Shown: in pieces, positions 38,765 to 57,668 of the stretch | Position numbering within the stretch: position 1 is the stretch's first letter | Layout: every line of letters begins with the position of its first letter | DNA from: Lonicera japonica | Lineage: Eukaryota; Streptophyta; Magnoliopsida; Dipsacales; Caprifoliaceae | Assembly (NCBI GenBank): GCA_021464415.1 | Contig: CM038469.1 | Span: 12,688,501-12,752,500 of the forward strand | Reading direction: 5' to 3' | Length of the DNA stretch: 64,000 nt | Notes under the pieces: model-generated | The model's database searches: none | Told to the model about the DNA's origin: nothing | The model's input: the letters and a program-made list of their open reading frames with translations, nothing else | Made by a program: the position numbers and the translations under genes

Positions 38765-38879
38765 AAGGATACATTATAAAAAAGTTTAATGTAAATATAT
38801 TGATTTTATAATTTTGATAATGTACATTTAAAAAAAAAAAATTTGGATAATGAAATTTCTATTTGTTTTCCTTTAGTAT
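38765..38879 (+). mobile_element. Left arm (outer part) of a foldback transposon, split by the retrotransposon
   Basis: 38800-38879 aligns with the reverse complement of about 58275-58380 (shared ATTTCTATTTGTTTTC-type and GATTTTATAATTTTG-type blocks). The arm resumes at 57669 after the retrotransposon. The outer end is blurred. Confidence 0.65.
38875..38879. repeat. 5-bp target duplication AGTAT, left copy
   Basis: AGTAT directly before the left LTR equals 57664-57668 directly after the right LTR. Confidence 0.95.
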
Positions 38880-40067
38880 TGTGAGAATCCGCAAATGCGA
38901 CCCCCCGGGTCTCGTCCCCGTTGGTGGTGGGGGTCATGGGACGTCGGAACTGATTCCGTCGTTCCATTTTGCTGGAGTGTTTTCGTTGATTCATATCAAG
39001 TGTCCCTACGTTCTATTTCTAGATGCAAGGGGGGTTCATTCAGAGTCGCCAGTACGTTTTTACGAGAAAACGGACAAAAAAGGTCGTGTAAGAGGAAAGG
39101 CTATAGACAAGCCTTTCTTTACACGTTTGTCTGCGAAACCGGGATTCTTAGAGGGTTCGGAAACTATATTACGGTTTGGGAAGGTGTTAAGCACCCATTC
39201 CGCCCTTTCGGTCTCTAGTGGTCTTATATGTTTATTCTATGTTGAAAAACTTGGATGCTTTTACCGACAGTCTACTACTTTCTAAATAAATAAAAAAAAC
39301 CTTAATTTGGGAAAACGGGGAAAGGAATGAAAACCTTTGTGTTCCGAGATCCGATGTTTTTATATTTAAAAGATGTAAATGACAAATGACAAAAACCTTT
39401 TATTTTTGAAAGAGCATTCCGTATTATTTCCTCAGATAATGACGGTTTTCTCGAGTTGTGATTATTCTGAAAAAGGTTCGGATCTTTATGTCGGGACTAA
39501 TTCAATATGGAATTTGAACTCTTTGAGGAGAGTTTATCAGACACGTCGCAGTCTATGAAAAAGACAGGATATGTGGATTTTAATTCCTAGATAAGTCTTT
39601 ATCGGTCCGGGGTTTTGAAAACAGGGTTTATCCGGACGATAATATACTTACTCTTCTGGTTTTGAAAGTAGTTTTATCAGGGTCTTTTGTTTTGAAAACG
39701 GTAGACTATTGGTAACTTGACAATAAGTTTATTCAAATAAAACGTGGACAGAATAACAGAAGTAAAACAAGTACACAGATATCTAATTTTAAATACTAGA
39801 AGGGACTTTCTTTACCTTCCCGACGAGAATAATAATAATAAAGAAAATATAATACGGCAGAGGGATCTCCGGCGATAATAATCTTCTCTTTCTTCAGATA
39901 TTTCCGAGAAATCGATTCCGGAGACGGGACACGTCGAGTGTCGAGGATAGATTCGATAATTCTTCAGAAATAAGATAATAGTAGAAAAGTGCTTGATAAA
40001 AATCAGATCTAAAGCTCCAAATTCTCAGATTCCAATTGCTGCCCCTGAACCCTTGGGGGTGTTGGCC

Positions 40068-40075
40068 TATTTATA
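40068..40075 (-). promoter_or_regulatory. LTR TATA box
   Basis: TATAAATA on the minus strand, 15 bp downstream of the last palindrome in the direction of transcription. Confidence 0.75.
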
Positions 40076-40090
40076 CTGCTCGGGAGAGAT

Positions 40091-40348
40091 TGTCGCGCGA
40101 CATTTCCTTAAAAAAGGAGAATGTCGCGCGACATTGTGATATGTCGCGCGACATACGGGAATGTCGCGCGACAAACGGCTGAAGTGATGGTTCTGACAGA
40201 TTGATGTGTCAGAAAGTGGTTGGTCTGGTGCAGAGGGGGAATGTCGTGCGACATAGTGGAATTGTCGCGCGACATATCAGGGATTGTCGCGCGACAATGT
40301 GATATGTCGTGCGACAATCTCTCTAAAGAACAAGTTTGTCGGGCGACA
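40091..40348. promoter_or_regulatory. Array of nine TGTCGCGCGACA palindromes in the 3' LTR
   Basis: Starts at 40091, 40122, 40142, 40162, 40242, 40263, 40285, 40305 and 40337. Six are perfect; 40242 and 40305 read TGTCGTGCGACA and 40337 reads TGTCGGGCGACA. Start-to-start steps are 31, 20, 20, 80, 21, 22, 20 and 32 bp. They sit in U3, upstream of the TATA box. Confidence 0.95.
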
Positions 40349-40455
40349 AACCTTCCTAGTGTAGTACCGGGTCCTCGGGTGGGTCCCGGACCCAAAATAG
40401 TAGTTCTCGGAGGTCGTTAGGGTTCTTGCGGGGGTCACGGATCGGGGTGTCTACA

Positions 40456-40470
40456 GACCCTCTCGACTCA
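40456..40470 (-). other. Polypurine tract candidate
   Basis: On the minus strand the bases directly before the 3' LTR read GAGTCGAGAGGGTC, purine-rich but short and imperfect. Confidence 0.4.
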
Positions 40471-40559
40471 AGCTCCTTGCTTTGCAAGGAATTGAGGCGA
40501 CTGGAAGAGACCTTGATCCATGGCTCCCGCAGGAACTCTAAGAAAGTGTATGCGTATAG

Positions 40560-41380
40560 AAGTACTTGTGAGTGCCTCCGGAGAGGGCTTGGCGATTGGT
40601 TTGCCTCCGCAGAGGGCTTGTGTTACCTCATTGCCCCTTTCGAGGACTTTCATTTGTTCCTCTTTGCGCCTCAGATGGGAGGACTACCGTATGCCTCTCT
40701 GGGAGGGCTTCGCCTCAGGTGGGAGGACTACCGTTCGTGCCTCTCTGGGAGGGCTTCGCCTCAGGTGGGAGGACTACCGTTCGTGCCTCTCTGGGAGGGC
40801 TTCGCCTCAGGTGGGAGGACTACCGTTCGTGCCTCTCTGGGAGGGCTTCGCCTCAGGTGGGAGGACTACCGTTGCTACACCGTGCCTCTCTGGGAGGGCT
40901 TTTTAGATCTTCTCGCCTCATGTGGGAGGACTACCATTGTGCCTCTCTGGGAGGGCTTCGCCTCAGGTGGGAGGACTACCGTTCGTGCCTCTCTGGGAGG
41001 GCTTCGCCTCAGGTGGGAGGACTACCGTTGTGCCTCTCTGGGAGGGCTTCGCCTCAGGTGGGAGGACTACCGTGGTGCCTCTTTGGGAGGGCTTCGCCTC
41101 AGGTGGGAGGACTACCGTTGTGCCTCTCTGGGAGGGCTTCGCCTCAGGTGGGAGGACTACCGTTGTGCCTCTCTGGGAGGGCTTCTAGATCTGAAAGAAG
41201 AAGGAAAAAATGCCTCTGGGAGGACTTTCATGAGTAACTTTTGCCTCTGGAGAGGGCTTGTGATTTTGTGTATTGCCTCCGGAGAGGGCTTGTGTTGGTG
41301 AATGCCTCCGGAGAGGGCTTGTGTTTGTGAATTGCCTCTGGAGAGGGCTTGTGTTGGTGAATTGCCCCTCTTAGACTGCT
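40560..41380. repeat. GC-rich minisatellite region
   Basis: Main unit of 43-46 bp, GCCTCTCTGGGAGGGCTTCG plus CCTCAGGTGGGAGGACTACC, about 11 copies from 40690 to 41185. It is flanked on both sides by a shorter ~30-bp relative with GCCTCCGGAGAGGGCTTG (40576, 40603, then 41233-41350). Several frames on the plus strand stay open through it because the unit has no stop codons. Confidence 0.9.
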
Positions 41381-42173
41381 AGAGTGAAAGAGAGTAGATT
41401 TTGCGAAGGTAAAAAGAACTTCTCAGGGTCTATTCGGGATGTCCGTTTCCCTGTATCTTTCTGAACTTTACTCTCATGTTTTCCTCGAGTGAAGATGTTT
41501 CACTCAGAAGGCAGTTTTCGGATTTCTTTGCTCTCCGCAGAGTGATGGTCCGAAGTTTTCCAAATCATCTTTTCTGTATCGTGCTGAAAAGAAAATTTGT
41601 TTGAAAGTTCAATCTCTGATCTTTATTCTTTTCTTAGTTTTCTCTTTTGGTGGGCCCACATCGTTTTCTGTTTTTTCGATGCCCTTATTTCTCCCTCTTT
41701 TGGGAAAGACTTTTCCTGGCCCTCTCTGTTTTTGACCAGGAGTCTTTTCATCCCTTTGTCGTGATCAGGAGCCTTACTCACCCTAAAACGAAGCCCTGAG
41801 CCGTTTTTTGGCCTAGCTATCACTTTCGGTGTGGCTCTCCCTGTCACTCTGCATTTCTGTTTCTCTCGCTCGCTTTGGGCGTTCATACGGGTTATTTCTC
41901 TTTTCTACTCTTTCAATTTTTTCTATTCCCGTCTTATATCGCTATTCTGCTTTTTATTTGACGGTCTCGGTCCTTCTGTAAGATCAGAGACTACTTTTAA
42001 TCGCGGCATTCTGTTTTCGCATTTTTTCGAAGAGATGATTTGGAAGTTTTCTCTTTGAACTTTTTATCATGGGTGTGCGGTTTTTAGCAATTTTCCGAAA
42101 ACTGCTTCTCCGAAGTGCCTCTGCAGAAGATAAAATGAGACAAAGATCAAAAAAATCAGGGAGGAGGGGGGAT
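41381..42173. other. Retrotransposon 3' region between minisatellite and gene A promoter
   Basis: T- and C-rich single-copy-looking DNA; no gene or repeat recognised. Confidence 0.5.
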
Positions 42174-42238
42174 TGTCGCGCGACACTTCGGTGTCTGGCT
42201 CTTTGTCGCGCGACAATGTGGCCATTTGTCGCGCGACA
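42174..42238 (+). promoter_or_regulatory. Three TGTCGCGCGACA palindromes before gene A
   Basis: Perfect copies at 42174-42185, 42204-42215 and 42227-42238 (steps 30 and 23 bp). The last ends 11 bp before the TATA box. Flanking bases differ from those in the LTR. Confidence 0.95.
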
Positions 42239-42249
42239 AACTGACCCAT

Positions 42250-42257
42250 TATATAAA
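42250..42257 (+). promoter_or_regulatory. Gene A TATA box
   Basis: TATATAAA, about 155 bp before the ATG at 42405, followed by a CT-rich leader. Confidence 0.7.
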
Positions 42258-42404
42258 CCCCTTGCTGAGCTCATTCCACCTCATTCTCTCCTTTCTCTTT
42301 CTCTCTCTAGCTCTCTTTTTCTCTCTTTTCTTCTCTCCCAAGCGCGGAAGCTCTGCCGTGTTTTTGATTTTTCCGATTTTTTCACACATATTCTACCTAT
42401 ATCG

Positions 42405-45400
42405 ATGGACCCTGCTCATCTCGACCGATTGGAGGGTGACCAGGAGGAGGTCACCTTTACTGACGCTCAGGGCGTTCTTCGCTGCAGCCCTCATCACGAC
42501 GACTGGGCGGACTTGGACTGGTATGATGAGGATGGGATAGACCGCGGTCGGGCGGTGGTCTATCGGGATGCTATCCGAGCTGCTCCGGTCCCGGACGTCC
42601 CGTGGCTTTTGATGGAGCCCGTTTCTCACGAGATTCGTCGTCGATCTCTGGTATGTCTTCTTTCGTGCATTTATCTGTTCTGTTTCTTGTCGTTTCCTGT
42701 ATTCGTTTTAGATAATGTTAGTATGCATGTCTGACTAGGAATAACGCCCGATTTTTAGCGAACACATACTTTCACCTGTGATACCTCTTAGTTTAGAAAA
42801 TTACATAATGTACCCCCATAACTCTATAACTCTCATAATTACACCAAAGTACCCTCAGGTTTTGAAAATTACATAATTTACCCTTATAACCCCTATAACT
42901 CTCATAATTACACCAAAGTACCCTCAGGTTTTGGAAATTACATATTTTACCCTTATAACCCTATAACTCTCATAATTGCACCAAAGTACCCTCAGGTTTT
43001 GGAAATTACATAATTTACCCTTATAACCCCTATAACTCTCATAATTACACCAAAGTACCCTCAGGTTTTGGAAATTACATAATTTACCCTTATAACCCCT
43101 ATAACTCTCATAATTACACCAAAGTACCCTCAGGTTTTAGAAATTACATAATTTACCCTTATAACCCCATAACTCTCATAATTACACCAAAGTACCCTCA
43201 GGTTTTGGAAATTACATAATTTACCCTTATAAACCCCTATAACTCTCATAATTGCACCAAAGTACCCTCAGGTTTTGGAAATTACATAATTTACCCTTAT
43301 AACCCCATAACTCTCATAATTGCACCAAAGTACCCTCAGGTTTTGGAAATTACATAATTTACCCTTATAACCCCATAACTCTCATAATTGCACCAAAGTA
43401 CCCTCAGGTTTTGGAAATTACATAATTTACCCTTATAACCCCTATAACTCTCATAATTACACCAAAGTACCCTCAGGTTTTGGAAATTACATAATTTACC
43501 CTTATAACCCCTATAACTCTCATAATTGCACCAAAGTACCCTCAGGTTTTGGAAATTACATAATTTACCCTTATAACCCCATAACTCTCATAATTGCACC
43601 AAAGTACCCTCAGGTTTTGGAAATTACATAATTTACCCTTATAACCCCTATAACTCTCATAATTGCACCAAAGTACCCTCAGGTTTTGGAAATTACATAA
43701 TTTACCCTTATAACCCCTATAACTCTCATAATTACACCAAAGTACCCTCAGGTTTTGGAAATTACATAATTTACCCTTATAACCCCTATAACCCTCATAA
43801 TTACACCAAAGTACCCTCAGTTTTTAGAAAATTACATAATTTACCCCTATAGCTTTATAACTCTCATAATTATACCGAAGTACCCTCATAACCCCATACT
43901 CGTTCCTTTGTCTGCAGTGGGTTGGCCGCGGTTGGGGTTCCCCCAACACTATATCTTCGGAGTGGCGACGGGCACCGGCCCCTGTTCAGGAGTTGATTCT
44001 CGCGACTCCTTTTGGCTCCCTCTTCGACGCCCTTCCGGAGCGGGTTTCTAGGGCGACAGTTTTGGTGTCGGCATTGGCTTGCCACTGGTGGGACACCACC
44101 CATACCTTTCACTGGAGCTGGGGGGAGATGACGATGACCCCCCTCGATTTGTTTGCTTTGACCGGGATCCCTTCAGGGGGGTCCCCATTCAGATCGACGT
44201 CCCCTTGCGTCTGACAGCCGAGGGCATCGTTAGTTCATTAGGATGGTTTCCGGAGCGACGGAGTTCCGGTGACACGATTCCTCGGGGCGTCTTGGTTACG
44301 CGGTTAGCCACAGAGAGGGCTCGACTAGCTGCTTCAGGGGTTCCTATGACCCGTCAGGAGGCGCGCCAGTATGCCCGCGTCTTTCTTCTATTGACACTCC
44401 ATGATCTATTCGAGGCTCGTGGTGGGGACACGGCTCATCTTTGGTGGTTGCCCTATCTTCGGGACTTCAGCCTCCTGTTTGACTACGACTGGGGAGGCTT
44501 TATTCTTGCAGTCCTTTACGATGCCATGGACCAGGTCTCTCGTCATTTAGCCCTGAACCTCAAGGGCTTTTCTTTGCTGTGGGAGGTACATTTTTTAGTC
44601 TTTCTGTCTTTGCTTCAGTTCTTTGCTCATTACTTGTTGATCATTGCTGATTTCTTCTATCTTTCCTTTTCAGAGCTGGTTTGTAGCTTATACCCGTCTG
44701 GGTCGCGCCCAGGTGGATCTCCTCGTTGAGAACGAGGACCAGTTCCCTTTTCTCCGCCGATTCATCGCGGGGAACTATAGGGCTCCCTATGTATACCGGA
44801 CTCGGGAGACCGGAGCTGCTGCTGTTCATGATCTGCGGGAGGAGCAGGTAAAATATTTTTAGTCTTCTTGCTTTTCAATAGTCAGATAGAGTAGAATATA
44901 TAAAATACTGAAATAAAATCTTATTCTCTTTTCAGATTGAGTGGGCCCCTTGGGGTGATCTGGGTCATCATTATGGGTATGGCCGTGCTCTGACCGCCTC
45001 GAGGACCAGGCGGCTTATCCGGGATGAGTACGGCCTTCTCTTCTACTTGGGCGAGAGGGTCATCCGTCAGCATACGCCGTCCCAGTGGCCTCGTGTCCCT
45101 TTGTTCCCTCCTGTTCTGATGAGGCGGACGGGTGAGATTGATCAGGTGATGGTGCAGGCTTTAGTCGACGGACTCGGTTTCCAGACGTTCGTCGAGGAGG
45201 GAGACTACGCTGTTTTTGCTGCCCGTTACCTGATGAGGGAGCCGAAGGGGACTCGGGGACGGGTCTTCTACGAGAGATACCAGACTTTGGGAGGTGATCC
45301 CCATTACATACGGGGACAGACTCATTTAGCTAGGGCGGTCCCGGGTCATTTGCCACCTGTCCCTGATCAGAGGGACAACATTCCGGATTCTGAGGATGAG

Positions 45401-46503
45401 GATCCTGAGGGAGAGAGGGATGTTCCCGCTGCGGCTGAGGGCGGTGATCGGCCAGAGGGAGAGGGAGGCGATGCGACAGCGGTTCCGGAGCCGCCACCTC
45501 AGGCGACACCTGCGGGGGAGCAGCGCGCTGAGGGCTTCGAGTTTCCCACCAGCCCTTCCGTGTCTCCGGGGGGCCTTTTTGCTGCTGCTGAGGCTGCTGA
45601 GGGGAGAGCGGGATTTTCTGAGAGGTCCTGGGAGCCCGCGGACCTTGGGGCAGATTTTGATCAGTTTGGGCGGACTCCTCCCGCGGCGGCGACTACTCCT
45701 TCTAGTGGAGTACCTCCTTTGGGGGCGACGGCCATGGTGGATCCTCCGGGGGTCCGAACATATGCTACGTTGACCCCTCTACCGACGACTGTCATGGGGC
45801 CTCCCGCCCGATCTCCGGGCTTTGGCGGCTCATCCTCTCGTCCACCCTTGTTCCCCATTCGTGAGGAGGGAGGGTCTTCTTCTGCAGCTACTCGTGCAGG
45901 GTCATCTATTTCGTGGGTAGACCTACCTCCACTCCCCAGAGATATTTCTTATGTCGGCGCGGGCCTATGTCGATATTCTGTCCCGGAGTATCCTCTTCCC
46001 GAGGATACTTTTGATTTCTTGGGTGGTCGCTCTGATGATGAGGTATCTTCTTCAACTTCTCCTGATACTTTCATGTTTATATCTATTTATTTTGACTGTG
46101 CTGATTCTCCTTTTTTTGTATGTCTTTTTTACAGAGAGTGGGTGTACGGGTGGCAGATCTTCGGGCTTGGTATGCCCAGTATTTCTACAGCTGGAACCTG
46201 CTCCAATACGTCGGTCGAGACCCTCCAGCCTACATGCGCGACTATCAGAGGGCTATCGACGTCTCCTTACGGCCGGACGACCCCCTGACCTCTTCCCATG
46301 CTCGGTCGGAGTCTAGGCGGAGTAGTAGTCGGACTTCTAGGCGGTCCCGATCTTCGGTGATTCGTCCGACGGCGCCTGTTCAGTCTACGGGTCTTTCCCA
46401 GGCGGCAGCTCCTCTTGCTCCCAGCGTCCCAGTTGTTGATCTTACTCCCGAGGAGGGCTCGGGTGATAGCGGGAGCGTGTCAAAACGCGCCCGAGTAGAT
46501 TAG
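42405..46503 (+). CDS. Antisense accessory gene A: plant mobile domain protein, five exons, frameshifted
   Basis: Lies opposite to gag-pol. Exons: 42405-42650, 43918-44585, 44674-44847, 44936-46042, 46135-46503; GT-AG introns. Intact length would be about 854 aa. Exon 2 holds a plant mobile domain (PMD; family with Arabidopsis MAIN/MAIL1): SALACHWWDTTHTFHW, WGEMTMTPLDLFALTGIP. Exon 3 continues it. Exon 4 is a long Pro/Gly/Glu-rich linker (IPDSEDEDPEGE). The end is Arg/Ser-rich with nuclear-signal-like SKRARVD. Exon 2 is 668 bp, one base short of a whole frame: the frame changes at or near the six-G run 44176-44181, with a TGA at 44212. So this copy is broken unless the run is misread. PMDs on Ty3/gypsy elements are reported; their role on elements is unknown. 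Confidence 0.75.
42780..43900. repeat. 67-70-bp tandem array filling gene A intron 1
   Basis: About 16 copies of a unit running ACCAAAGTACCCTCAGGTTT, GGAAATTACATAATTTACCC, TTATAACCCCTATAACTCTC. Copies vary by the presence of 'ct' in CCCCTATAAC. The array lies between the donor at 42651 and the acceptor ending at 43917. Confidence 0.95.
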
Positions 46504-46819
46504 TTTTCTCTTTTCTGCATTTAGTGTTAGTCGGACAGATATGTATTTATTTTAGACGGATATTTAAAAACTGTTCTTTTATTGGTTTTATAAAATATCT
46601 TCATCTGTGTTTGATTATACTTTTATTCTCTGTCTGTGCAAGATATATACATATATATATAAGAGTCGGTAATTTAAAAGTCGTACCTTCTAGTGTAGTG
46701 ATACTTATGTTTCCTGCAAAAAAGAACAAAGTGAGAACAGAAAAGCATCCAGAAGTGATTCTTTTGGCAAAGATGACCATTATGTATAAGAAAAAAGTAG
46801 GGTGCCCCCCAGATGGGTT

Positions 46820-46895
46820 TGTCGCGCGACAATCCCTCCTGGTCATGGGTTTGTCGCGCGACACTTCCCCCTGAAAATGGGTTTGTCGCGCGACA
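46820..46895 (+). promoter_or_regulatory. Three TGTCGCGCGACA palindromes before gene B
   Basis: Perfect copies at 46820-46831, 46852-46863 and 46884-46895, exactly 32 bp apart. The last ends 26 bp before the TATA box. Confidence 0.95.
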
Positions 46896-46921
46896 AACAG
46901 GTACAGGACCCTCTTTTTTGC

Positions 46922-46929
46922 TATAAATA
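46922..46929 (+). promoter_or_regulatory. Gene B TATA box
   Basis: TATAAATA, 38 bp before the ATG at 46968 in a C-rich leader; a short leader of roughly 15 bases is implied. Confidence 0.75.
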
Positions 46930-46967
46930 CACCCATCTTCCTTCCTTCATCCCCACACCTCTCCAAA

Positions 46968-48224
46968 ATGTCTTCCTACCGTACCAACTCTGATTTTTCT
47001 TATGTTAAAGCTCGAGATGCTCTGATATCTTCTGAAAATGGTTTGAACTTTGGTGCATTCAGTCCTTTGGCGGGCTGGTGCCATCGTCCTGTAGATTTCT
47101 CTTTTCTGTTAGGTGCTTTGTATTTCTGGAGTCCTGCGGACCATCTCTTCCGTTTTGGACTAGATGAGCTCTGCCCAACCTATGAGGAGTTCTCCTGGCT
47201 GTTACGTTCTGACGTTCGTCTCCCGATGGCAGTTCCTATAGAAGGAATCGGTCCCCGCGACATGCTAATTGCTCTGTTAGCCATTCCCCAAGCGGCCTGC
47301 GATGGTTTCATTGTCGACGGGCTCCTTGACCTCCACAAAATGGTGAGGTTCTTTCATCGTTATGAAGATAGGGCCTCTTACGGCGTGGGGCGTACTGCAG
47401 CGGCCCTGATTTGCCTGGTTTCTGATATGCTGCTGGTGACGGGTTCTTCCCGTGTTGATCCGACTATCTTGAGTCTGATTTACCAGGCTAGAAATGGGGA
47501 GTCTATAGTGCCGATCATTCTTGCAGAGACCCTGAATGGTCTTGATGATGTTCAACGGGGGGCCTCGCCCTTCTTTCGGGGGAGCCCGCGTCTGCTATAC
47601 ATGTGGCTGCTAGAGCGCTTTCGATCGGTGGGTTTCAGCGGAGTTCGGCTCGACAATCCGACTCATTTCTTCCATCGGCCTCTCTTTGGTGCTTTGACCA
47701 TGTCTTCCTCTGATTGGACGGTGTGGTTTTCGGAGAACTTTCGGGCTATCCGGTGGAACATTCCTTGGTGGAAGCTGAGGAAGATGGTACTTAGTACTGG
47801 GGGTCAGAACTACGTTCGGCTCCGCGGGCTCTGGTTTACTTCCTTTTATCTCCCTGGGCGCCTTCTTCGACAGTTTAACATTCCTCAGGAGGTTCCCCTT
47901 GGTCTGAACAACTTCTCTTCTGAGTCTAAATTTGTGACCCCACATGTTTCTTTATCGGTAGAGAGGATGTGGCGTGCTCGACTGACTCGTCAGTTTAACT
48001 ATGCTCGTTTCGGTATTTCCAGGCCTCTCCGGGCTGACATTATCCGCTCTTGCTGGCAATCTCTAGAAGGAGAGCTGATTGATGACCCCTTTCAAATGGA
48101 GTGGTTCCGATTCATGGATTCTGAGCCTACAGAGGATGGCATTGTCTTTGCGTACCAGATTTTGGATGAGGCTCGAATTGATTTGGCCGCTGAGGACCCA
48201 GTGTGGCCAACCCCTAGGGATTAG
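46968..48224 (+). CDS. Antisense accessory gene B: PMD-like protein, single exon, 418 aa
   Basis: Opposite strand to gag-pol and converging on it (226 bp between the two stop codons). One uninterrupted frame from an ATG in good context (AAAATGTC). Residues 54-80 (FWSPADHLFRFGLDELCP, TYEEFSWLLR) have the pattern of a plant-mobile-domain core (aromatic-H-x-F-x-F, acidic Leu, Thr-x-x-E, Leu-Leu), matching in layout gene A's THTFHWSWGEMTMTPLDLFA. The rest is helical with many Trp/Arg/Phe and no known catalytic motif. Similar domains of unknown function (the type recalled as DUF7745) occur in plant transposon-linked proteins. I infer A and B are distant relatives. An AATAAA-type signal is at about 48311. 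No frame damage. Confidence 0.8.
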   Translation: MSSYRTNSDFSYVKARDALISSENGLNFGAFSPLAGWCHRPVDFSFLLGALYFWSPADHLFRFGLDELCPTYEEFSWLLRSDVRLPMAVPIEGIGPRDMLIALLAIPQAACDGFIVDGLLDLHKMVRFFHRYEDRASYGVGRTAAALICLVSDMLLVTGSSRVDPTILSLIYQARNGESIVPIILAETLNGLDDVQRGASPFFRGSPRLLYMWLLERFRSVGFSGVRLDNPTHFFHRPLFGALTMSSSDWTVWFSENFRAIRWNIPWWKLRKMVLSTGGQNYVRLRGLWFTSFYLPGRLLRQFNIPQEVPLGLNNFSSESKFVTPHVSLSVERMWRARLTRQFNYARFGISRPLRADIIRSCWQSLEGELIDDPFQMEWFRFMDSEPTEDGIVFAYQILDEARIDLAAEDPVWPTPRD

Positions 48225-48450
48225 TTTCTTCTTTGTATGCTGTACTTCCTTTGTAACTCTTGGTGTTCTGAACCACCTCTTTAATAATATATGAAGGGAC
48301 TTTTTATGAGAAATAAATTTCTTTACAAAGCTTTAAACCGGGCCTGAAGTCACTTCTCAGGTTGCCTACGTTCCCCCCTTTTTGATTTTTTCAGAAAATA
48401 CGATATTCGAGTTGGGGCTCAGGTTTACGTAGTTCTTATACACGTCGTGC

Positions 48451-51400
48451 TTATTGATAATACTTCTTCAGTCGGTCCATGTTGACTGGTGAATGTAGTA
48501 ACTGCCCGTCTAGGTCAGTGAGTATAGCGGCGCCCCCTGTATTGATTTCTTTGACGATATACGGCCCTGTCCACTTCTGCCCGAACTTTCCCCTCGGATC
48601 TCTGGCTGGCTCTCGAATTTCTTTCAACACGATGTCATTTTCAGTGATACCCCGAGTCCTCACTCTCTGGTTAAATGCTCGAGCGATTCTCTTCTGATAT
48701 CCTTGATGGTGGTATGCGGCTTTCAATCTTTTCTCATCTAGTAAGGCTAGCTCGTTATAACGTGCCTGGACCCACTCCAGTTCATTGACCTGATTCTCTA
48801 GCATTACTCTGAGGGAAGGGACCTCTAACTCGACAGGGAGGACTGCTTCCATCCCGTATGTAAGCGAGAACGGGGTTGCCCCGGTAGAGACCCTTTCGGT
48901 GGTGCGGTATCCCCACAATGCATATGGTAATTTCTCCGGCCAGTCCCGGCAGGTGTCGGTCATCTTGCTTAGGATATTCTTCAAATTCTTGTTGGCGGCT
49001 TCAACTGCCCCATTGGTTTGTGGTCTATATGGCGAAGATTTGTGTCGGGTGATACCGTATTCCTCCATGACTGTATTAGCTTCTCCTTCGAAGTGGGTGC
49101 CGTTATCTGAGATGATCTCGTGTGGGACCCCATATCGGCAGACAATATTCCTTTTGATGAATCGGGCAACTTTCCTGGCATCCAGGGTTTGGTAAGATTC
49201 GGCTTCCACCCATTTGGTGAAGTAGTCGATGGCTACTAGTATGAATTCATGGCCGTTGCTGGCTTTGGGTGAGACTTTCCCAATGACGTCAATTCCCCAG
49301 GCTGAAAAAGGCCAGGGAGCAGTCATGTTGTACAACTCTTTTGGAGGAAGCTTCTGGGACTTAGCATAAATTTGGCATTTGTGACAACGGCGTACATGAT
49401 CAGCGCAGTCAGTTTGTAGGGTAGACCAGAAATACCCTTGCCTGATGATCTTGCGGGCAAGCGTATGCCCGCTCATATGAGGTCCGCAATCGCCCCCATG
49501 TATCTGATCCATCATTCTAACTGATTCTTCTTCGGTGAGACATTGAAGATGAGTCCCGTCGTAGTTCCTCTTATATAATCTTCCGGCACAGAGTATGAAT
49601 CCTGATGCTAGTCTCCTGAGTGTGACCCGTGTTTTCTTGTCTGCTTTCTCGGGATACTGATGGTTCTTCAGCAGGTTCCAGATATCATAAAACCAAACGG
49701 TTGAGTCACCGTCTTTTTCAATTTCCACCTCAAGGGTCATGCAGTGCGCGGGTCCTGATTTCTTTTGTACCGTGAGGGTTATTTCTTCCATCCCCTCCGG
49801 AATATCGATCATAGATGCCAGGGTTGCCAATGCGTCAGCAAAACTGTTCTGGGACCTGGGGATATAGTAAAACTCCACACGCTCGAACCTTCCTGCGACT
49901 TCTTCTAGTCGGGCGAGGTAAGGGACCAATTTCTCATCTCTGATCTTCCATTCCTTCAGAACTTGATGGACCACTAGTGCTGAATCTCCGTATACCTGTA
50001 TCCTCCTTATACCCCTTTGAAAAGCGATCTCTAACCCGAGTATGCAGGCTTCATATTCGGCCATATTGTTGGTGCAGAAGAAGTCCAGTCGATATGATAC
50101 CGGGGAGTGAGTTTGGTCTGGAGAGACTAACAGGATGCCTATCCCGTTTCCGTTCCGATTGGCGGCCCCGTCAAAGTACAACCTCCAGTCTTCATTGATC
50201 TCGACGTTCATGATGGTTTCGTCCGGGAATTCGGCTTCTTCTATCATGTCTCCCAATATCGGATTGTGGGCCAGGTAATCAGCTATGATCTTGCCTTTGA
50301 CTGCCTTCTGGGTCATGTAGGTGATGTCGAATTCGGAGAGTAGAAATAACCATTTTGCCATTCGATTCGAGAGAGCCGGTTTCTCGAAGAGGTATTTCAA
50401 CGGATCAATCCGTGATGCCAGGATGACTGGAAAAACTAGCATGTAGTGCCGTAGTTTCTGTGTTACCCAGACGAGAGCGGTACACGATTTTTCCAATGGT
50501 GTGTAGTTTATCTCAAATGGGGATAGCTTTTTGCTGAGGAAATAGATGGCCTGCTCCTTCCGGGTATCGGTGAGGTGTTGGGCTAGCATTGCTCCCGCGG
50601 CTGAATCAGTGACGGTTAGGTATAGAATTAGTGGTAGTCCGGTCTGAGGCGGGGCTAACACTGGGGGCTTGGAGAGGTAATCTTTGATTTTGTCAAAAGC
50701 CTCCTGGCATTGATCGTTCCATTCTCCTGTTGAAGACTTCCTCAGGAGTTTGAAGATGGGTTCGCACTTTTGAGTGAGCTGAGAGATAAACCTACTGATG
50801 TACTGCAGATTACCCAAAAAACCCCGGATTTCTCTCTCGGTACGAGGCTCGGGCATGTCTTGGATAGCTTGAACTTTAGCGGGGTCCACCTCGATTCCTT
50901 TCTTACTGACGACATATCCCAGGAGTTTTCCTTTGGTTACCCCGAACACACATTTCTGCGGATTGAGTCTCATCTGATACTGGCGGAGCCGATCAAAGAA
51001 GGCTCGCAAGGCTGGTACGTGGCCTTCCCTCTCTTTTGACTTGATTATCATGTCGTCTACATACACCTCTACTTCTTTGTGAATCATGTCGTGAAAGATA
51101 GCCGTAGCTGCCCTCTGATATGTTGCCCCGGCGTTCTTCAGCCCAAACGGCATAACGGTGTAGCAGTATGTTCCCCACAGTGTGATAAATGCTGTTTTCT
51201 CCTGGTGATCCGGGTGCATCTTGATCTGGTTATATCCGGCAAAACCATCCATAAATGACTTCAGGGCGTGGTTGGCAGTATTATCTACTATCAAATCGAT
51301 GTTGGGCAATGGAAAATCGTCCTTTGGACAAGCTTTATTGAGATCCCGGTAATCCACACACATGCGGACTTTCCCATTAGCCTTTGGAACAGGCACGATG

Positions 51401-54400
51401 TTGGCTAACCACGAGGGGTACTCGATCACCCGTAAGAATCCCACACTCAGTTGTTTCATTACTTCTTCTTTCACTTTCAAGGACCATTCTGGCGTAAGTT
51501 TCCTCAGCTTCTGTTTGACGGGCCTAAGTTCTGGATTGGTGTGTATTTCGTGCATGACTATCTGACTGTTCAAACCCGGCATATCTGCATAAGACCAGGC
51601 GAAGACATCCACATACTCTTTCAGAGTTTGTGTGAATTCTTCTCTCTCTGTCCCACTTAGGCTTGCCCCAATGCGGACCTCTTTTCTTTCCTCCTCTGTT
51701 CCGAGGTTAATCACAAGAGTGTCTCCTTCCTCGCTTTGTATACGTTGCTCCTCCCGTTCAGGGTGTTCATTCATTCTTTCCAATTCCATATAAGCAATTA
51801 CAGAATTAAAAATAACAGGATAACGCAAAATAGACTCTTCTTTATTGATACTAGTATTTACAGGTACAAGTTTAAAAAGTTCATTTAGGAGTGACTCCTT
51901 CCTATCTTTACCCTCACTCTTATCTCTCACCCTTACAATTTCGCTCTTTTCCCTTTCCCCTTGGTAGTCTGGATCAGCGTATATCAAGTGTACAGGGTCG
52001 TCTCCTGGCTCATCATCTCCCAGAGCCATGATGTCGAAGAGATCTCCGATCATTTCTTCCTCTTCGCCTTTCATGTCTTCACTTTCTTCCTTCGGCCCGA
52101 TTGTCAACTTGGTAGCGAAGCTGTGTACGGTGTTTTCTTTGATATATAGGTCCTCTTCATAGAAGATTTCCCACCCAGGAAGGTTCTCTCCGTCGCTGTT
52201 TCTCCAAGGCTCCTGGAAGCCGCAAAAGGGGAAGTCCTCTCCTTCTTTGACAAAGAACCCGTTCAGAGAGCTGAAACTCGGATACTGATGCCCTCGACCC
52301 CTTTTTTGTTGATCGTCCTCTTCAGTGTGTTGGTACCCCAAACCTTCCCTCTCGTACCTTGCTACTGGTTCCAATGCTTGAAGTAGTCCTGGTTGTCCCA
52401 TTCCCAGACCGGCTCCAGGCAAGTATTTCATCATTCTCAACATATTTGTAATCTTGGTGCTGAGACCGGGGATATTGTCAGGGGGAAGATACCTGATTGT
52501 CTGGGTGCTAAGAGTTTGCACTTGAGGCTCGTAAGAAAAGCCTCCTAACTGTATGCTCTGGCTCCCGATTCCTAAAACTGGTAACTCCATATCCGCCAAG
52601 GTCCTTTCAGGATCTCCTTGGATGGTAATTATGTTCCCTTCAAACGGTATCTTGATCTTTTGGTGCAAGGAGGAGGGGAGTGCTCCTATGTCGTGTAGCC
52701 ATGCTCTTCCCAACAGTAGGTTAAAACTGGAAGGAATGTCTATGATTTGAAAGTCGGCCGGGAAGCTTCCGGGACCAACCATGAGATCAAGTTTCAGAGA
52801 CCCCAGAACGGCCCTCCTGGTATTATCATAGGCCCTGACGGTTACAGCGGATGGTGAGAGCTCTGAATCTGAGATACCCAAGCATCTGGCAGTCTTTAGG
52901 GGGCAGACATTTATGGTCGACCCATTGTCGATGAGAACTTGTGGCAAGATCTTCCCTCGGGTTCGGACGGTGATATGGAGAGCCAGGCTGTGTTTTCTCC
53001 CCAACGGAGACAAGTCTTCATCTGAAAATGACAGACTTCTTTGGACTGTGAGTGACCCGATCATGTTTGGCAGTTGTTCGGGCGTGGAGTCCGGCGATAT
53101 GACAGCCTCATCCAGGAGTTTAATGAAAGCGGTCCTGTGAGGTTTGGAGGCAACCAAGAGGCCCCAAATGGTGATGTGTGCCTGGGTTTTCTTCAACTGT
53201 TCCAGTACTCGGTTTTCTCCTACTTCTTTTGGAGGCGGTGATTTTTCGGCATCCATCGGTGGTGGCTGGTATACCTTTCCTGAGCGGGTAATCTGTTGTA
53301 TCCAAAGGGATGTTGGGTCTGATCCTTCTGAAGTTTCTGACGACTCTGGTTCTGCCGACCAACTAAAAGTCCCGGGGGAGGTTTCTGTCATACAGATTGT
53401 CTCCTTATGAGGGGGGCGGGGTTTCCATGGTTGTTTTTTCTTGTCCTGGGTCCATCCTATCCCAGCTTTCCCAGGATTGGTTTTGATGGTGAGGGGTTGC
53501 GAGATCCCCTGATTTGTCTTTCCTAAGCCCTGCCCAGGTAGGAAGTTCATCTTGGCCATCCATTGGTCAATTATTGGGTTGAGGCCTGGGGCAACTTGTG
53601 TTTTTGTCAATAGCATAACGGGTGCCTTATAGGCTGGATCGTCCCGAATGCGTCCTACGGGATCAAAGCCTTCATCAGTGGTTAAGGCGTTAATTCCTGC
53701 AGGTGGAGCATGATTGGGGAGGGGGTTGTTGGTAATATTGGGCCCGCCGGGTGCGGGGATGGTTCCGGCTTCAATGAGGTCCTGGATACGATGGCGGAGA
53801 GCTAAACAACGTTCCGTGTCATGGCCTGCCGCCTGATGGTACGCACAGTTCTCATTCATTCTCCAAGTGTTGGGAATAGGATTTGGTGGAGGGCGTGGGT
53901 TGAGTGGGGTGACTAGTCCGGCTTTTTGGAGTAGTTCCAGGCTTTTGACCAGAGTAGTGGGGAGGGTGCAAAAATTTCTCCTTTTCTTGACCTCGGTGTT
54001 TGAAGAGTCTCCCTGCGTAGGCCAACTCATTGGGGGGACTTGCGGTGACTGCTGAAAGGGGTTTTGTTGATATGGGTACGAGCTTAGTTGGTTTACGGCT
54101 GGAGTGGCCGTCTTTCTTCCAGTGTAAGAGGCCTTCTTGGTATCCGTGTCTGCCTTTCTGGTCAATTCTTCCTCTACCTGTGACCCCATACTCAACAGGG
54201 CTCTGAAGTGTGGGAATACATGCTTTCCCATGCAGTTCAATATAGCTGGAGTAAAATTCTTCTGTATGATTTCTAACTGCTCTTCTTCGTCGGGCCGTTT
54301 GGACATTTGGGATGCCATTTCCCTCCAGCGGGTGACAAAGTCGCTGAAGCTTTCTTTCTCGCCTTGCTTGGCCATTTCCAGGTGTTTACGGGTAATTTCC

Positions 54401-55335
54401 AAATTCTCGTTGGACCCGTACTTGGTCATGAATTCTTTGACGATATCCCCCCAAGTTTTCGTGTGGTGTTTCTCTAGGTCGAAGAACCATCTCAGGGCTG
54501 CCCCTGTGAGAGTCATGTGAAAAGCCTGAGCCAGCTCCGGCTCTCCACAGCCGGACACTTGCATGGATCTGATGTAGGATTGGAGATGGGTTTTGGGGGG
54601 TGTAGTACCAGTGAATTTGGTGATAGAGGGGAGCTTAAATCCTTGAGGTAGTCTGGCTTCTGGGTAGAGGGAAAAGGCGTTCATGTCTGTGATCTCGTCT
54701 GCCCCTTTCATCAGAGAAACACCTCTTTGCAGAACCTTCATCTGCTCTTTCAATTTCTTCATTTCTTCGCTCTCTCTTGACACCTCATCGGGCTGTTCCC
54801 GGGCTATCATCGATTCTGCGTATACTGCCCGGAGTCGGTTGATGTCTGGGTGCTCATTGGGAGGGGCTATTGGGGCTGGTGGAATAGGTCTTGCGGGGAC
54901 TTGTGGCCATGGTTGATATTGGGGATCGAGGCCTTGCTGAGGTTGTGGCCAGACGATGGGTGGCTCTTGTTGTTGGTATGTGGGGCCTGAATCCGGGGCC
55001 CATTGGTTCTGATTGTTGGGGTCGGTTTGAACGGGACCGGCCATGTTGGGGCCCGTTTGGGGTGGATTAGTTCCTTGGATTGGGGGAAGTACTTGTGAAG
55101 ATTGCCCTTGATTCGGATCTCGATTCGGTGGTAGTTGCTCAAACCCGGGTGGTGCGGTCCATTCGGCTGACAACTCTTCCATTCGAATCCGGGTGTTCTG
55201 TTGCTCACTTGTGAGGCTTGCCAAATTCATGCTGACGGTCATCAACAAACGGTGCATCTCGGCTAAAGTCGGTTGAACTGCAGACGCCTCGGCTAGGCTC
55301 TGATTTGTCTCCTGATTCTCTCGTCCATCGGCCAT
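48451..55335 (-). CDS. gag-pol: Gag-Pol polyprotein, Ty3/gypsy Tat type, 2294 aa
   Basis: Makes the particle protein and the enzymes for reverse transcription and integration. Domains by residue: Pro/Gln-rich start (1-165); Gag 230-400 (ALRWFFDL); a knuckle-like C-x2-H-x4-H-x4-C at 497-510; G-patch-like segment 592-628; aspartic protease with D803 in LIDNGSTINVCPL and LLLGRAWLHDIGA (873-885); second G-patch-like segment 968-1001; reverse transcriptase 1290-1480 with YVDD 1425-1428; a degenerate first RNase H (about 1560-1690); a second, archaeal-type RNase H with YFDGA (D1722), AEYEA (E1760), YGDS (D1784) and D1834; integrase zinc region 1946-1987 and core D2016, D2077, E2112 (DD35E). No chromodomain. 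One continuous frame with no stop or shift; no intron between protease and RT, unlike Ogre elements. Confidence 0.97.
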   Translation of the reverse strand: MADGRENQETNQSLAEASAVQPTLAEMHRLLMTVSMNLASLTSEQQNTRIRMEELSAEWTAPPGFEQLPPNRDPNQGQSSQVLPPIQGTNPPQTGPNMAGPVQTDPNNQNQWAPDSGPTYQQQEPPIVWPQPQQGLDPQYQPWPQVPARPIPPAPIAPPNEHPDINRLRAVYAESMIAREQPDEVSRESEEMKKLKEQMKVLQRGVSLMKGADEITDMNAFSLYPEARLPQGFKLPSITKFTGTTPPKTHLQSYIRSMQVSGCGEPELAQAFHMTLTGAALRWFFDLEKHHTKTWGDIVKEFMTKYGSNENLEITRKHLEMAKQGEKESFSDFVTRWREMASQMSKRPDEEEQLEIIQKNFTPAILNCMGKHVFPHFRALLSMGSQVEEELTRKADTDTKKASYTGRKTATPAVNQLSSYPYQQNPFQQSPQVPPMSWPTQGDSSNTEVKKRRNFCTLPTTLVKSLELLQKAGLVTPLNPRPPPNPIPNTWRMNENCAYHQAAGHDTERCLALRHRIQDLIEAGTIPAPGGPNITNNPLPNHAPPAGINALTTDEGFDPVGRIRDDPAYKAPVMLLTKTQVAPGLNPIIDQWMAKMNFLPGQGLGKTNQGISQPLTIKTNPGKAGIGWTQDKKKQPWKPRPPHKETICMTETSPGTFSWSAEPESSETSEGSDPTSLWIQQITRSGKVYQPPPMDAEKSPPPKEVGENRVLEQLKKTQAHITIWGLLVASKPHRTAFIKLLDEAVISPDSTPEQLPNMIGSLTVQRSLSFSDEDLSPLGRKHSLALHITVRTRGKILPQVLIDNGSTINVCPLKTARCLGISDSELSPSAVTVRAYDNTRRAVLGSLKLDLMVGPGSFPADFQIIDIPSSFNLLLGRAWLHDIGALPSSLHQKIKIPFEGNIITIQGDPERTLADMELPVLGIGSQSIQLGGFSYEPQVQTLSTQTIRYLPPDNIPGLSTKITNMLRMMKYLPGAGLGMGQPGLLQALEPVARYEREGLGYQHTEEDDQQKRGRGHQYPSFSSLNGFFVKEGEDFPFCGFQEPWRNSDGENLPGWEIFYEEDLYIKENTVHSFATKLTIGPKEESEDMKGEEEEMIGDLFDIMALGDDEPGDDPVHLIYADPDYQGEREKSEIVRVRDKSEGKDRKESLLNELFKLVPVNTSINKEESILRYPVIFNSVIAYMELERMNEHPEREEQRIQSEEGDTLVINLGTEEERKEVRIGASLSGTEREEFTQTLKEYVDVFAWSYADMPGLNSQIVMHEIHTNPELRPVKQKLRKLTPEWSLKVKEEVMKQLSVGFLRVIEYPSWLANIVPVPKANGKVRMCVDYRDLNKACPKDDFPLPNIDLIVDNTANHALKSFMDGFAGYNQIKMHPDHQEKTAFITLWGTYCYTVMPFGLKNAGATYQRAATAIFHDMIHKEVEVYVDDMIIKSKEREGHVPALRAFFDRLRQYQMRLNPQKCVFGVTKGKLLGYVVSKKGIEVDPAKVQAIQDMPEPRTEREIRGFLGNLQYISRFISQLTQKCEPIFKLLRKSSTGEWNDQCQEAFDKIKDYLSKPPVLAPPQTGLPLILYLTVTDSAAGAMLAQHLTDTRKEQAIYFLSKKLSPFEINYTPLEKSCTALVWVTQKLRHYMLVFPVILASRIDPLKYLFEKPALSNRMAKWLFLLSEFDITYMTQKAVKGKIIADYLAHNPILGDMIEEAEFPDETIMNVEINEDWRLYFDGAANRNGNGIGILLVSPDQTHSPVSYRLDFFCTNNMAEYEACILGLEIAFQRGIRRIQVYGDSALVVHQVLKEWKIRDEKLVPYLARLEEVAGRFERVEFYYIPRSQNSFADALATLASMIDIPEGMEEITLTVQKKSGPAHCMTLEVEIEKDGDSTVWFYDIWNLLKNHQYPEKADKKTRVTLRRLASGFILCAGRLYKRNYDGTHLQCLTEEESVRMMDQIHGGDCGPHMSGHTLARKIIRQGYFWSTLQTDCADHVRRCHKCQIYAKSQKLPPKELYNMTAPWPFSAWGIDVIGKVSPKASNGHEFILVAIDYFTKWVEAESYQTLDARKVARFIKRNIVCRYGVPHEIISDNGTHFEGEANTVMEEYGITRHKSSPYRPQTNGAVEAANKNLKNILSKMTDTCRDWPEKLPYALWGYRTTERVSTGATPFSLTYGMEAVLPVELEVPSLRVMLENQVNELEWVQARYNELALLDEKRLKAAYHHQGYQKRIARAFNQRVRTRGITENDIVLKEIREPARDPRGKFGQKWTGPYIVKEINTGGAAILTDLDGQLLHSPVNMDRLKKYYQ

Positions 55336-56068
55336 TTCAAGTATGCTTGGTCTTACTAGTCTTCCGGTATGATCTCGACCGGCCCAACCTTCCAGACTGA
55401 CGTCGCTTTATGGCTGTAGACGAAACCACGTGGCGAAGATGAAGGGAGACTATGATGCGACTCGACTTTTGCCAAAAGAATCACTAAAAATGGTCGAGAG
55501 AAAACCTCGAAAAAATAGGTGTGGTAAAGAAGGCCGTAAGGTGGTACATCCCCTACAGCTGTATGACAAGTGTTTTAACTGACTCAATCTTAGATGCAGC
55601 GCAGGTGTTCGAACGGTTAAGGCTTCAGGCTCCCTCCTTTTTGGCAAGACCTTGCGATATACCCCAAGGGCGGGTACGTGCAAGAATCTTTTGATATACT
55701 TCCCGGGTACGTGAGTGTTCTCGTCACTCGATATACCTCGGGGGCGTACTTGGCCAAGGAGAGTGGAAGTAAATGCTTTCGGTTTATGTTGGCCCAAGCA
55801 AGCCAACTCCCTACTCACTTATAATACTTCCGAGGGTTTGGGGTAAATTCACACTCGTAGAACCAATGCATGATTTGTGATAGTGCGTGTAAAGTTCGAA
55901 AGGTTGGTTTCACAAATATCTTTATCTTTATTACGTCTTTTCGAAAAACTCCCATTTTTTAGAAAAAGGTTTCTTCTCAATCAATTAACATGAGTAGGGA
56001 AAGCAGTAAAAGCAAGTTTTCAACAGATAAACAAAGGTCCACATATAAGAGTCTAGTTTTCTAATGAT
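55336..56068 (-). other. Retrotransposon 5' leader
   Basis: Untranslated region between primer site and Gag start. Contains repeated GATATACC-GGG-GTACGTG words (55650-55750). A 122-codon frame inside (55818-55450) has no recognised domain and is probably chance. Confidence 0.6.
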
Positions 56069-56087
56069 GTCCCCAGCGGAGTCGCCA
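56069..56087 (-). other. Primer binding site
   Basis: Minus strand TGGCGACTCCGCTGGGGAC, one base after the 5' LTR. It is complementary to a tRNA ending GTCCCCAGCGGAGTCGCCA, which fits the tRNA-Arg type reported for Tat/Ogre elements (from memory). Confidence 0.8.
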
Positions 56088-56088
56088 T

Positions 56089-57663: not shown

Positions 57664-57668
57664 AGTAT
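57664..57668. repeat. 5-bp target duplication AGTAT, right copy
   Basis: Matches 38875-38879. Confidence 0.95.

What the first reader, a model, noticed from the sequence alone, without database searches (positions are those of the whole stretch)
40068..46929. One 12-bp palindrome shared by the LTR promoter and both antisense accessory-gene promoters
TGTCGCGCGACA occurs perfectly six times in each LTR (plus three one-base variants), three times before gene A and three times before gene B, each array lying just upstream of a TATA box. A given 12-mer is expected about 0.004 times in 64 kb, and I saw none outside the element. The flanking bases differ between arrays while the 12-mer is kept, which argues for selection rather than a recent copy of the LTR. 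Inference: a dimeric DNA-binding protein controls the genomic RNA and both accessory genes as a regulon; gene A or B could encode or recruit it. Plant CGCG-box (CAMTA) or E2F-like factors are alternative binders.
Basis: partly seen in the sequence, partly recalled or inferred. Interest (0 to 1): 0.93.

Follow-up and report, generated by a model that had tools for sequence, protein, structure and literature searches.

The report
Shared palindrome switch in plant retrotransposon
A recently inserted jumping gene, probably from honeysuckle, carries the same 12-letter palindrome, mostly repeated at helix-turn spacing, in front of its main promoter and of two extra genes read in the opposite direction, which looks like one built-in control switch and could show what those extra genes do.

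Summary
TGTCGCGCGACA occurs 18 times perfectly and 6 times with one mismatch in the window, all inside one young 18.8-kb Ogre/Tat-type LTR retrotransposon: in its LTR promoter and the promoters of two antisense genes, each just upstream of a TATA box. Both genes resemble plant mobile domain (PMD) proteins. Between promoters the core is identical while outer flanks are unrelated (28% identity). The host genome (886 Mb, probably Lonicera) holds 13,909 close pairs of sites against 0 for a reversed control. In 16 stretches fetched around such pairs, 126 of 126 sites fall in these three promoter types of related elements. In 14 of 14 LTR relatives, sites are better conserved than the spacers. Of 113 consecutive spacings, 95 are two or three helical turns (20-23 or 30-34 bp). 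Best reading: a dimeric factor binds side by side and co-regulates all three transcripts. It is probably one of the element's own PMD proteins; a host factor is a serious rival. No binding was tested. Whether distant Ogre families keep this motif or have their own could not be tested, because that genome search did not complete.

The parts
38875..57668 (-). Whole LTR retrotransposon with 5-bp target duplication AGTAT (38875-38879 and 57664-57668); gag-pol reads on the - strand
   Evidence: LTR ends and TSD read; LTR pair compared
38880..40455 (-). 3' LTR (left copy), 1576 bp
   Evidence: differs from the other LTR by 1 substitution and 1 indel
56089..57663 (-). 5' LTR (right copy), 1575 bp, would drive the genomic RNA
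40091..40348 (.). Palindrome array in left LTR: 6 perfect and 3 one-base variants, all three variants at centre position 6
   Evidence: variant position from the sequences
57299..57556 (.). Same array in right LTR
40068..40075 (-). TATA box of the LTR promoter (starts 40075, reads leftwards), 15 bp below the nearest site
   Evidence: sequence
42174..42238 (.). Gene A promoter array, 3 perfect sites
42250..42257 (+). TATA box of gene A
42405..46504 (+). Gene A (antisense to gag-pol): PMD protein with RS-rich basic C-terminus. Inferred exons 42405-42650, 43918-44585, 44674-44847, 44936-46042, 46135-46504. Frame broken in exon 2 between about 44172 and 44181
   Evidence: splice signs and frames; PF10536 on the two exon-2 pieces (first above, second below the curated cutoff); relatives
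42750..43880 (.). 68-69-bp tandem repeat inside intron 1 of gene A
46820..46895 (.). Gene B promoter array, 3 perfect sites in a 32-bp tandem unit
46922..46929 (+). TATA box of gene B
46968..48224 (+). Gene B (antisense to gag-pol): intact single-exon 418-aa protein resembling PMD and DUF7745, below both curated cutoffs on its own
48451..55335 (-). gag-pol, one open frame of 2294 aa: gag, two G-patch stretches, RT, RNase H, second (archaeal-type) RNase H, integrase
40645..41211 (.). 45-46-bp tandem repeat next to the 3' LTR

Best explanation
The palindromes are binding sites for one sequence-specific dimeric nuclear factor. It sits in rows on one face of the helix immediately upstream of the TATA boxes of the LTR and of both antisense genes, so the genomic RNA and both accessory proteins form one regulon. 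The sites and their conservation are shown computationally; dimer binding and co-regulation are inferred from symmetry, spacing and position. I commit to the factor being element-encoded: gene A and/or gene B, two divergent PMD-like proteins, binding directly or through a partner. The expected effect is activation or anti-silencing of the element's own promoters with feedback on the regulator genes, comparable with VANC on VANDAL, TnpA on Spm and MAIN/MAIL1 on DOWN-motif promoters. My estimate is about 0.85 that these are shared functional cis sites and about 0.45 that the binder is encoded by the element.
For: 24 matches versus 0 in 100 shuffles. Cores 100% identical between promoters while outer flanks are 28% identical (45 pairs). 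No 2-mismatch sites in the window. 13,909 close pairs in the genome against 0 for the reversed control. 126 of 126 sites in 16 stretches fetched around array places lie in LTRs (102), gene A promoters (15) or gene B promoters (9). In 14 of 14 LTR relatives, site identity (0.90-0.97) exceeds spacer identity (0.51-0.76) and LTR-body identity (0.81-0.93), ungapped columns only. Of 36 one-mismatch sites in distinct contexts, 24 vary at the centre base, as for two half-sites TGTCG/CGACA with a tolerant middle. Among 26 spacer clusters of 50 bp or less, spacings are 20-23, 30-34 and one 42; the 10.5-bp phase score was reached in 0 of 20,000 random sets. CpG in array spacers is 5 observed versus 17.0 expected (P 0.0007), while site CpGs are kept 231 of 272 versus 649 of 871 for other LTR CpGs. 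Both antisense genes are PMD-like. PMD proteins MAIN/MAIL1 are required for promoters carrying a short motif (PMC7156037, passages).
Against: No binding, expression or methylation data were available. Neither PMD protein showed a recognised DNA-binding domain in the pieces scanned: the gene B model is weak (mean pLDDT 56) and finds no PDB match at E 0.001 or better. The copies compared are related and from one chromosome-size contig of one genome, so the counts are not independent. The alignment may favour site-to-site pairing. Sites do decay: 10 of 124 distinct contexts have two mismatches, and one relative's gene B promoter has one changed base in both sites. In 3 of 14 LTRs (L018, L022, L016) CpG retention in sites is slightly below that of the rest, and the window's LTR outside the sites is not CpG-depleted (observed/expected 1.11). 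Local duplication contributes to the spacing pattern; 17 longer spacings (72-103 bp) were left out of the phase test; and in the window alone periods of 10.0 and 12.0 bp concentrate the spacings more than 10.5. Co-activating transcripts antisense to each other would invite dsRNA silencing.
Confidence: 0.45

Rival explanations
1. The sites bind a host transcription factor (dimeric, plant) that the element uses to be expressed in a given tissue or stress; proteins A and B do something else.
For: Many plant LTRs use host factors (general knowledge). Every site contains TGTC/GACA, the core of auxin response elements (15 of 15; motif recalled). Two variant sites contain the recalled brassinosteroid element CGTGYG (2 of 15). 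A host activator would solve how a silent element first makes its own regulator.
Against: Recalled consensus strings of CAMTA (VCGCGB, CGCGT) and E2F match 0 of 15 sites, TGTCTC 0 of 15 and TGTCGG 1 of 15. 13,909 site pairs could titrate a host factor. The 126 sites in the fetched stretches are all in this element group, although the stretches were chosen for arrays and cannot show host genes with single sites.
Confidence: 0.37
2. The CpG-rich palindromes are primarily methylation or RdDM landmarks: targets or nucleation points for host silencing, or unmethylated islands, with no specific activator.
For: Three CpGs per perfect site, CpG-poor spacers, C>T at the centre the commonest change (21 of 36 one-mismatch sites).
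Against: Methylation does not need a fixed 12-mer, outer arms that rarely vary (3 of 36 one-mismatch changes at positions 1-3), or helical phasing. An element gains nothing by conserving silencing targets in all its promoters.
Confidence: 0.08
3. Neutral by-product: a short repeat that spread by slippage, gene conversion or LTR-derived duplication.
For: Local duplication is real: the 32-bp unit in the gene B promoter, two versus three copies between relatives, and similar site pairs within the LTR.
Against: Flanks between promoters are unrelated while cores are identical. Spacers are less and sites more conserved than the LTR body in 14 of 14. Short spacings are limited to two or three turns plus one 42.
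Confidence: 0.05
4. Structural role at DNA or RNA level, such as integration or pairing sites or RNA hairpins in the 3' end of the genomic RNA.
For: The 3' LTR array would be present in the genomic RNA; the perfect sites are exact inverted repeats.
Against: It does not explain the same arrays before genes A and B, whose transcripts run on the other strand; a gapless 12-bp palindrome should make a poor hairpin (not folded here).
Confidence: 0.05

Closest known systems
Ogre (Tat) LTR retrotransposons with PMD-coding extra ORFs (PMC6317226, passages; PMC5418596, passages)
   Same: Second RNase H between RNase H and integrase, very long element, PMD coding outside gag-pol (here antisense, downstream of pol).
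   Different: Two PMD-like genes here, each with its own TATA promoter carrying the LTR's palindrome; I saw no shared promoter motif in the passages read.
VANC anti-silencing system of Arabidopsis VANDAL DNA transposons (PMC5735166, passages; PMC10398659, passages)
   Same: Dense arrays of one short motif, family-specific, in non-coding regions of the element, turning over by tandem duplication.
   Different: LTR retrotransposon, palindromic motif, helically phased, in three promoters; no comparison with VANC proteins was run; binding and demethylation not shown.
MAIN/MAIL1 PMD proteins and the DOWN motif (PMC7156037 and PMC9899485, passages)
   Same: PMD proteins linked to promoters that carry one short motif; activation of transcription and effects on transposons.
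   Different: Host genes; the motif printed for MORC1 (CATGCAGTTT) is absent from all 15 sites here; direct binding was unproven there too.
TnpA of maize Spm (activation and demethylation named in PMC10398659, passage; 12-bp motif recalled)
   Same: Element-encoded regulator acting on a methylated element promoter, by recall through a 12-bp motif repeated near the promoter.
   Different: DNA transposon, by recall a non-palindromic motif and an unrelated protein.
Retand antisense ORFs with Transposase_28 (PMC11963269, parts 1-3 of 5 read)
   Different: Transposase_28 (PF04195) was not found in gene B or the gene A pieces scanned; PMD was.

Membership tests
Tat clade, Ogre/Retand type LTR retrotransposon | Second RNase H between RNase H and integrase | tested here: met
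   RT_RNaseH 1567-1669, RVT_3 1728-1839, rve 2009-2105
Ogre | PMD in extra ORF (57% of Ogre in PMC6317226) | tested here: met
   Gene A pieces hit PF10536, the first above the cutoff (37.1 versus 34.9 bits), the second below (21.9); gene B below (18.2)
Ogre | Position in an RT tree with Ogre | not tested
   No tree built; no reference elements held
Ogre | tRNA-Arg primer binding site | not tested
   PBS region seen but not compared with a tRNA
Retand | Antisense Transposase_28 domain | tested here: not met
   No PF04195 in gene B or in the gene A pieces scanned; gene A exons 1 and 5 of the window not scanned
VANC-type sequence-specific anti-silencing | Arrays of one short motif in non-coding DNA of the family, turning over by tandem duplication | tested here: met
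VANC-type sequence-specific anti-silencing | Encodes a VANC-family protein | not tested
   No direct VANC comparison was run; the accessory proteins hit PMD in Pfam
VANC-type sequence-specific anti-silencing | Protein binds the motif and removes methylation | not testable with these tools
   needs ChIP or EMSA and bisulphite data
CAMTA sites | VCGCGB or CGCGT consensus (recalled) | tested here: not met
   0 of 15 sites
E2F sites | TTTSSCGC or WTTSSCSS (recalled) | tested here: not met
   0 of 15 sites
PMD-DOWN motif module | CATGCAGTTT motif as printed for MORC1 | tested here: not met
   0 of 15 sites

The most novel reading that the evidence does not exclude
This is a self-contained regulatory circuit inside an LTR retrotransposon. 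Its own PMD proteins bind a helically phased palindrome array at the LTR and at their own two promoters to counter silencing. That would make it the LTR-retrotransposon counterpart of VANC/TnpA and would give transposon PMD proteins, relatives of the host proteins MAIN/MAIL1, a function: reading a family-specific DNA motif.
Probability: 0.38. Interest if true: 0.9.

Novelty: new variant of a known kind. Interest (0 to 1): 0.74.

Why it matters
The role of antisense genes of plant LTR retrotransposons (Grande, RIRE2, Retand) is described as unknown in the papers read (PMC7264820, parts 1-2 of 3; PMC11963269, parts 1-3 of 5), and how PMD proteins find their targets is left open (PMC7156037, PMC9899485, passages). 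Here sequence alone gives a precise, testable target: a 12-mer with a spacing rule, in 13,909 close pairs in one genome, directly in front of two PMD-like genes. One gel shift or DAP-seq with proteins A and B would go far to decide it. If positive, it links transposon PMD genes, sequence-specific anti-silencing and the host MAIN/MAIL proteins.

Tried and rejected
Led nowhere: plasmid DNA search (no match); viral-contig scans with the motif pair, with gene B and with an RT/RNase H piece (the one hit, L009, 32% over 110 residues, was not followed). Bacterial-genome scan with the motif pair gave 8 stretches, of which part of one was read and is a local repeat in a bacterium; the other 7 were not read. 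Structure of gene B: two models, mean pLDDT 39 and 56; PDB fold search of the second had 0 matches at E 0.001 or better and 27 at E 10 or better; PDB sequence search gave one match, at E 0.41.

A PMD-like exon (33% identical to gene A exon 2a) beside one fetched copy (L029:1327-1518) was examined for repeated palindromes in its flanks (2.1 kb and 4.9 kb); the only repeated one was an AT run. It is not known to be from a related element.

Rejected: random occurrence; simple LTR-derived copying of the arrays; CAMTA/E2F in their recalled consensus form.

Literature: the exact 12-mer was searched in the held library, and the one paper listed is on chicken PRMT4 (listing only). Searches were the other nine searches; their listed rows (capped lists) name no palindrome array shared by an LTR and antisense genes. 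One more paper, on sunflower LTR elements with additional ORFs (PMC11728184, passages), was looked at without bearing on the motif. I recall, without having found it, a more recent report on PMD protein-DNA motif modules and Polycomb; it was not seen.

Not achieved: the comparison with distant PMD-carrying families in the same genome (query P0003, 45% identical to gene B) did not complete. A genome-wide count of in-between spacings was asked once and not answered.
Full report
WHAT IS THERE. The window holds one LTR retrotransposon inserted on the - strand, with a 5-bp target duplication AGTAT and LTRs of 1576 and 1575 bp that differ by one substitution and one indel, so it is recent. gag-pol is one open frame of 2294 aa with a second RNase H before the integrase and two G-patch stretches, which places it in the Tat clade, Ogre/Retand type (definition in PMC6317226, passages); no RT tree was built. 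Between pol and the 3' LTR lie two genes on the opposite strand. Gene B is an intact 418-aa ORF that resembles PMD and DUF7745, below both Pfam cutoffs on its own; its closest relative is a Lonicera macranthoides protein at 96% identity whose precomputed label is PMD, though it too is below the cutoff in my scan. Gene A has five inferred exons; its two exon-2 pieces hit PMD, one above and one below the cutoff. Its C-terminus is RS-rich and ends in a basic KRAR stretch, and its two closest relatives are again Lonicera proteins. In this copy gene A's frame is broken once in exon 2. The host is therefore probably Lonicera; the genome record is unnamed.

THE PALINDROME. The motif is the only 12-bp palindrome other than pure A/T ones that occurs more than once in the window. 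Over all 12-mers of the window, 18 are at 0 mismatches from the motif, 6 at 1, none at 2 and 6 at 3. All three variant sites of an LTR differ at position 6, the centre. The nearest site ends 15, 11 and 26 bp above the TATA boxes of the LTR, gene A and gene B (TATA starts), so in all three cases the array occupies the proximal promoter in the direction of that transcript.

SELECTION, NOT COPYING. Over 45 between-promoter pairs of perfect sites, the 12 core columns are identical and the flanks beyond the first three bases are 28% identical; the two bases on either side are A or T with few exceptions. CpG outside the sites is depleted in the arrays (5 observed, 17.0 expected from spacer composition, Poisson P 0.0007), although the LTR outside its sites is not depleted (observed/expected 1.11). 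Another Lonicera copy of gene B was annotated 41 residues longer than here; that extension translates the promoter across two of the palindromes and agrees with the window in 40 of 41 residues, the exception being a stop in the window. The DNA of that copy was not seen, and synonymous changes would be invisible.

THE GENOME. The search of the host genome (886,079,548 bases) found 13,909 places with two perfect sites 5-35 bases apart and 0 for the reversed control. I fetched 16 stretches of about 10 kb from one contig around the first-listed places, so they were chosen for their arrays and are no random sample. Each carries LTR, gene A, gene B or gag-pol matches, with LTR segments 72-90% and gene A exon 4 78-90% identical. 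All 126 sites with at most one mismatch lie in LTRs (102), within 450 bp upstream of gene A (15) or of gene B (9) (one of the nine, at L018:82, is assigned to gene B by its distance from gene A because the stretch ends there). In an alignment of 14 LTR copies (the LTR pieces of two stretches, L021 and L028, were left out as partial), site columns are 0.90-0.97 identical to the window, array spacers 0.51-0.76 and the LTR body 0.81-0.93, gapped positions set aside; sites are above both in 14 of 14. CpGs in sites are kept 231 of 272 times against 649 of 871 for other LTR CpGs (Fisher P 0.0003, not independent); in 3 of 14 copies the sites are slightly below. Of 124 distinct site contexts, 78 are perfect, 36 have one mismatch and 10 have two. 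Of the 36, folded on the half-site, 24 vary at the centre base, 6 at position 4, 3 at 5, 2 at 2, 1 at 1 and none at 3. In gene A promoters three sites are present in 6 of 6 copies aligned, two of those copies with one changed site; in gene B promoters the window has three sites and the 4 relatives two each, by a 32-bp tandem unit, and in one relative both sites have one changed base. The copies share ancestry, so these counts are not independent tests.

SPACING. Of 113 consecutive spacings up to 130 bp, 63 are 20-23 bp, 32 are 30-34 bp, one is 42 (containing a decayed site) and 17 are 72-103 bp. Collapsing similar spacers of 50 bp or less to 26 clusters, the mean phase score at 10.5 bp per turn is 0.794, reached by 0 of 20,000 random sets of spacings 16-50; scores are lower at 10.0 (0.501) and 11.0 (0.645). 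The longer gaps were not in that test, and 80-81 bp is not a whole number of turns. In the window alone the signal was weaker: P 0.0004 with all 12 spacings and 0.01 with distinct spacings, and there periods of 10.0 and 12.0 bp gave higher concentration than 10.5. The places printed fall in the same two classes except one of 43 that holds a one-mismatch site between, although the pattern allowed 17-47. Sites two or three turns apart lie on the same face of the helix, as expected for side-by-side, cooperative dimers.

WHO BINDS. Not shown. Recalled CAMTA and E2F consensus strings match 0 of 15 sites; the TGTC core of auxin response elements is in all 15 by construction, but TGTCTC is in 0, TGTCGG in 1 and the brassinosteroid string CGTGYG in 2. 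For the element's own proteins speak the place of the arrays in front of exactly these genes, their absence elsewhere in the window, and the biology of PMD proteins: MAIN and MAIL1 are needed for a set of promoters that carry the short DOWN motif, with direct binding left open (PMC7156037 and PMC9899485, passages); PMD-A clades occur only in Gypsy elements, and an anti-silencing use has been speculated for PMDs captured by MULEs (PMC5418596, passages). VANC proteins show that a plant transposon can be regulated through dense arrays of a short motif read by its own protein (PMC5735166, passages), and TnpA of Spm is named as activating its element together with demethylation (PMC10398659, passage). 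Structure prediction of gene B was too weak to help.

HOW IT WOULD WORK. Shown: shared, conserved, mostly phased sites at three promoters. Inferred: a dimer reads TGTCG..CGACA; rows of dimers keep the promoters open or active; the same sites on the regulator genes give feedback. An open problem is that genes A and B are antisense to the 3' region of the genomic RNA, so simultaneous transcription could make dsRNA; a repressor or a timed switch is therefore possible.

VERDICT. Parts of it (antisense PMD genes in Ogre, motif arrays read by transposon proteins) are known kinds; their combination in an LTR retrotransposon did not appear in the listed rows of the ten literature searches.

Noticed in passing
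window 44160-44200 and L015, L018, L020, L022, L029: The frame of gene A breaks at one point in exon 2 beside a run of G, and the distance between the two matching pieces varies there among relatives; slippage hotspot, annotation problem or a programmed shift are all possible. Not mended or followed.
   Followed up: no
window 42750-43880: A 68-69-bp tandem repeat (15 overlapping copies listed) fills most of intron 1 of gene A; VANC targets in Arabidopsis also include introns with tandem repeats (PMC5735166, passages).
   Followed up: no
window 40645-41211: A 45-46-bp tandem repeat (GCCTCTCTGGGAGGG...) lies next to the 3' LTR, as reported for Retand elements.
   Followed up: no
window 53455-53559 and 52327-52446 (- strand): gag-pol carries two G-patch stretches (residues 593-627 and 964-1003), a domain reported in some plant Gypsy elements and type D retroviruses (PMC9289625, passages).
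   Followed up: no
window 40182-40241: The gap in the LTR array (80 bp start to start) holds an imperfect inverted repeat CTGACAG...TGTGTCAG, possibly decayed or different half-sites; in the 101-103-bp gaps of relatives, 2-mismatch sites stand 20, 22 or 31 bp from a neighbour.
   Followed up: partly
L024 4177-4548, L025 4437-4669: LTR arrays of relatives reach 9-11 sites, apparently by repeating 20-22-bp units, showing array turnover.
   Followed up: partly
L008 1710-2010: A Bacteroidales genome has a local array containing the same 12-mer in a 42-bp repeat; unrelated context.
   Followed up: no
L029 1054-1683: A different PMD-type coding exon lies beside a fetched copy, which is inserted next to it with target duplication CAGAC.
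   Followed up: partly
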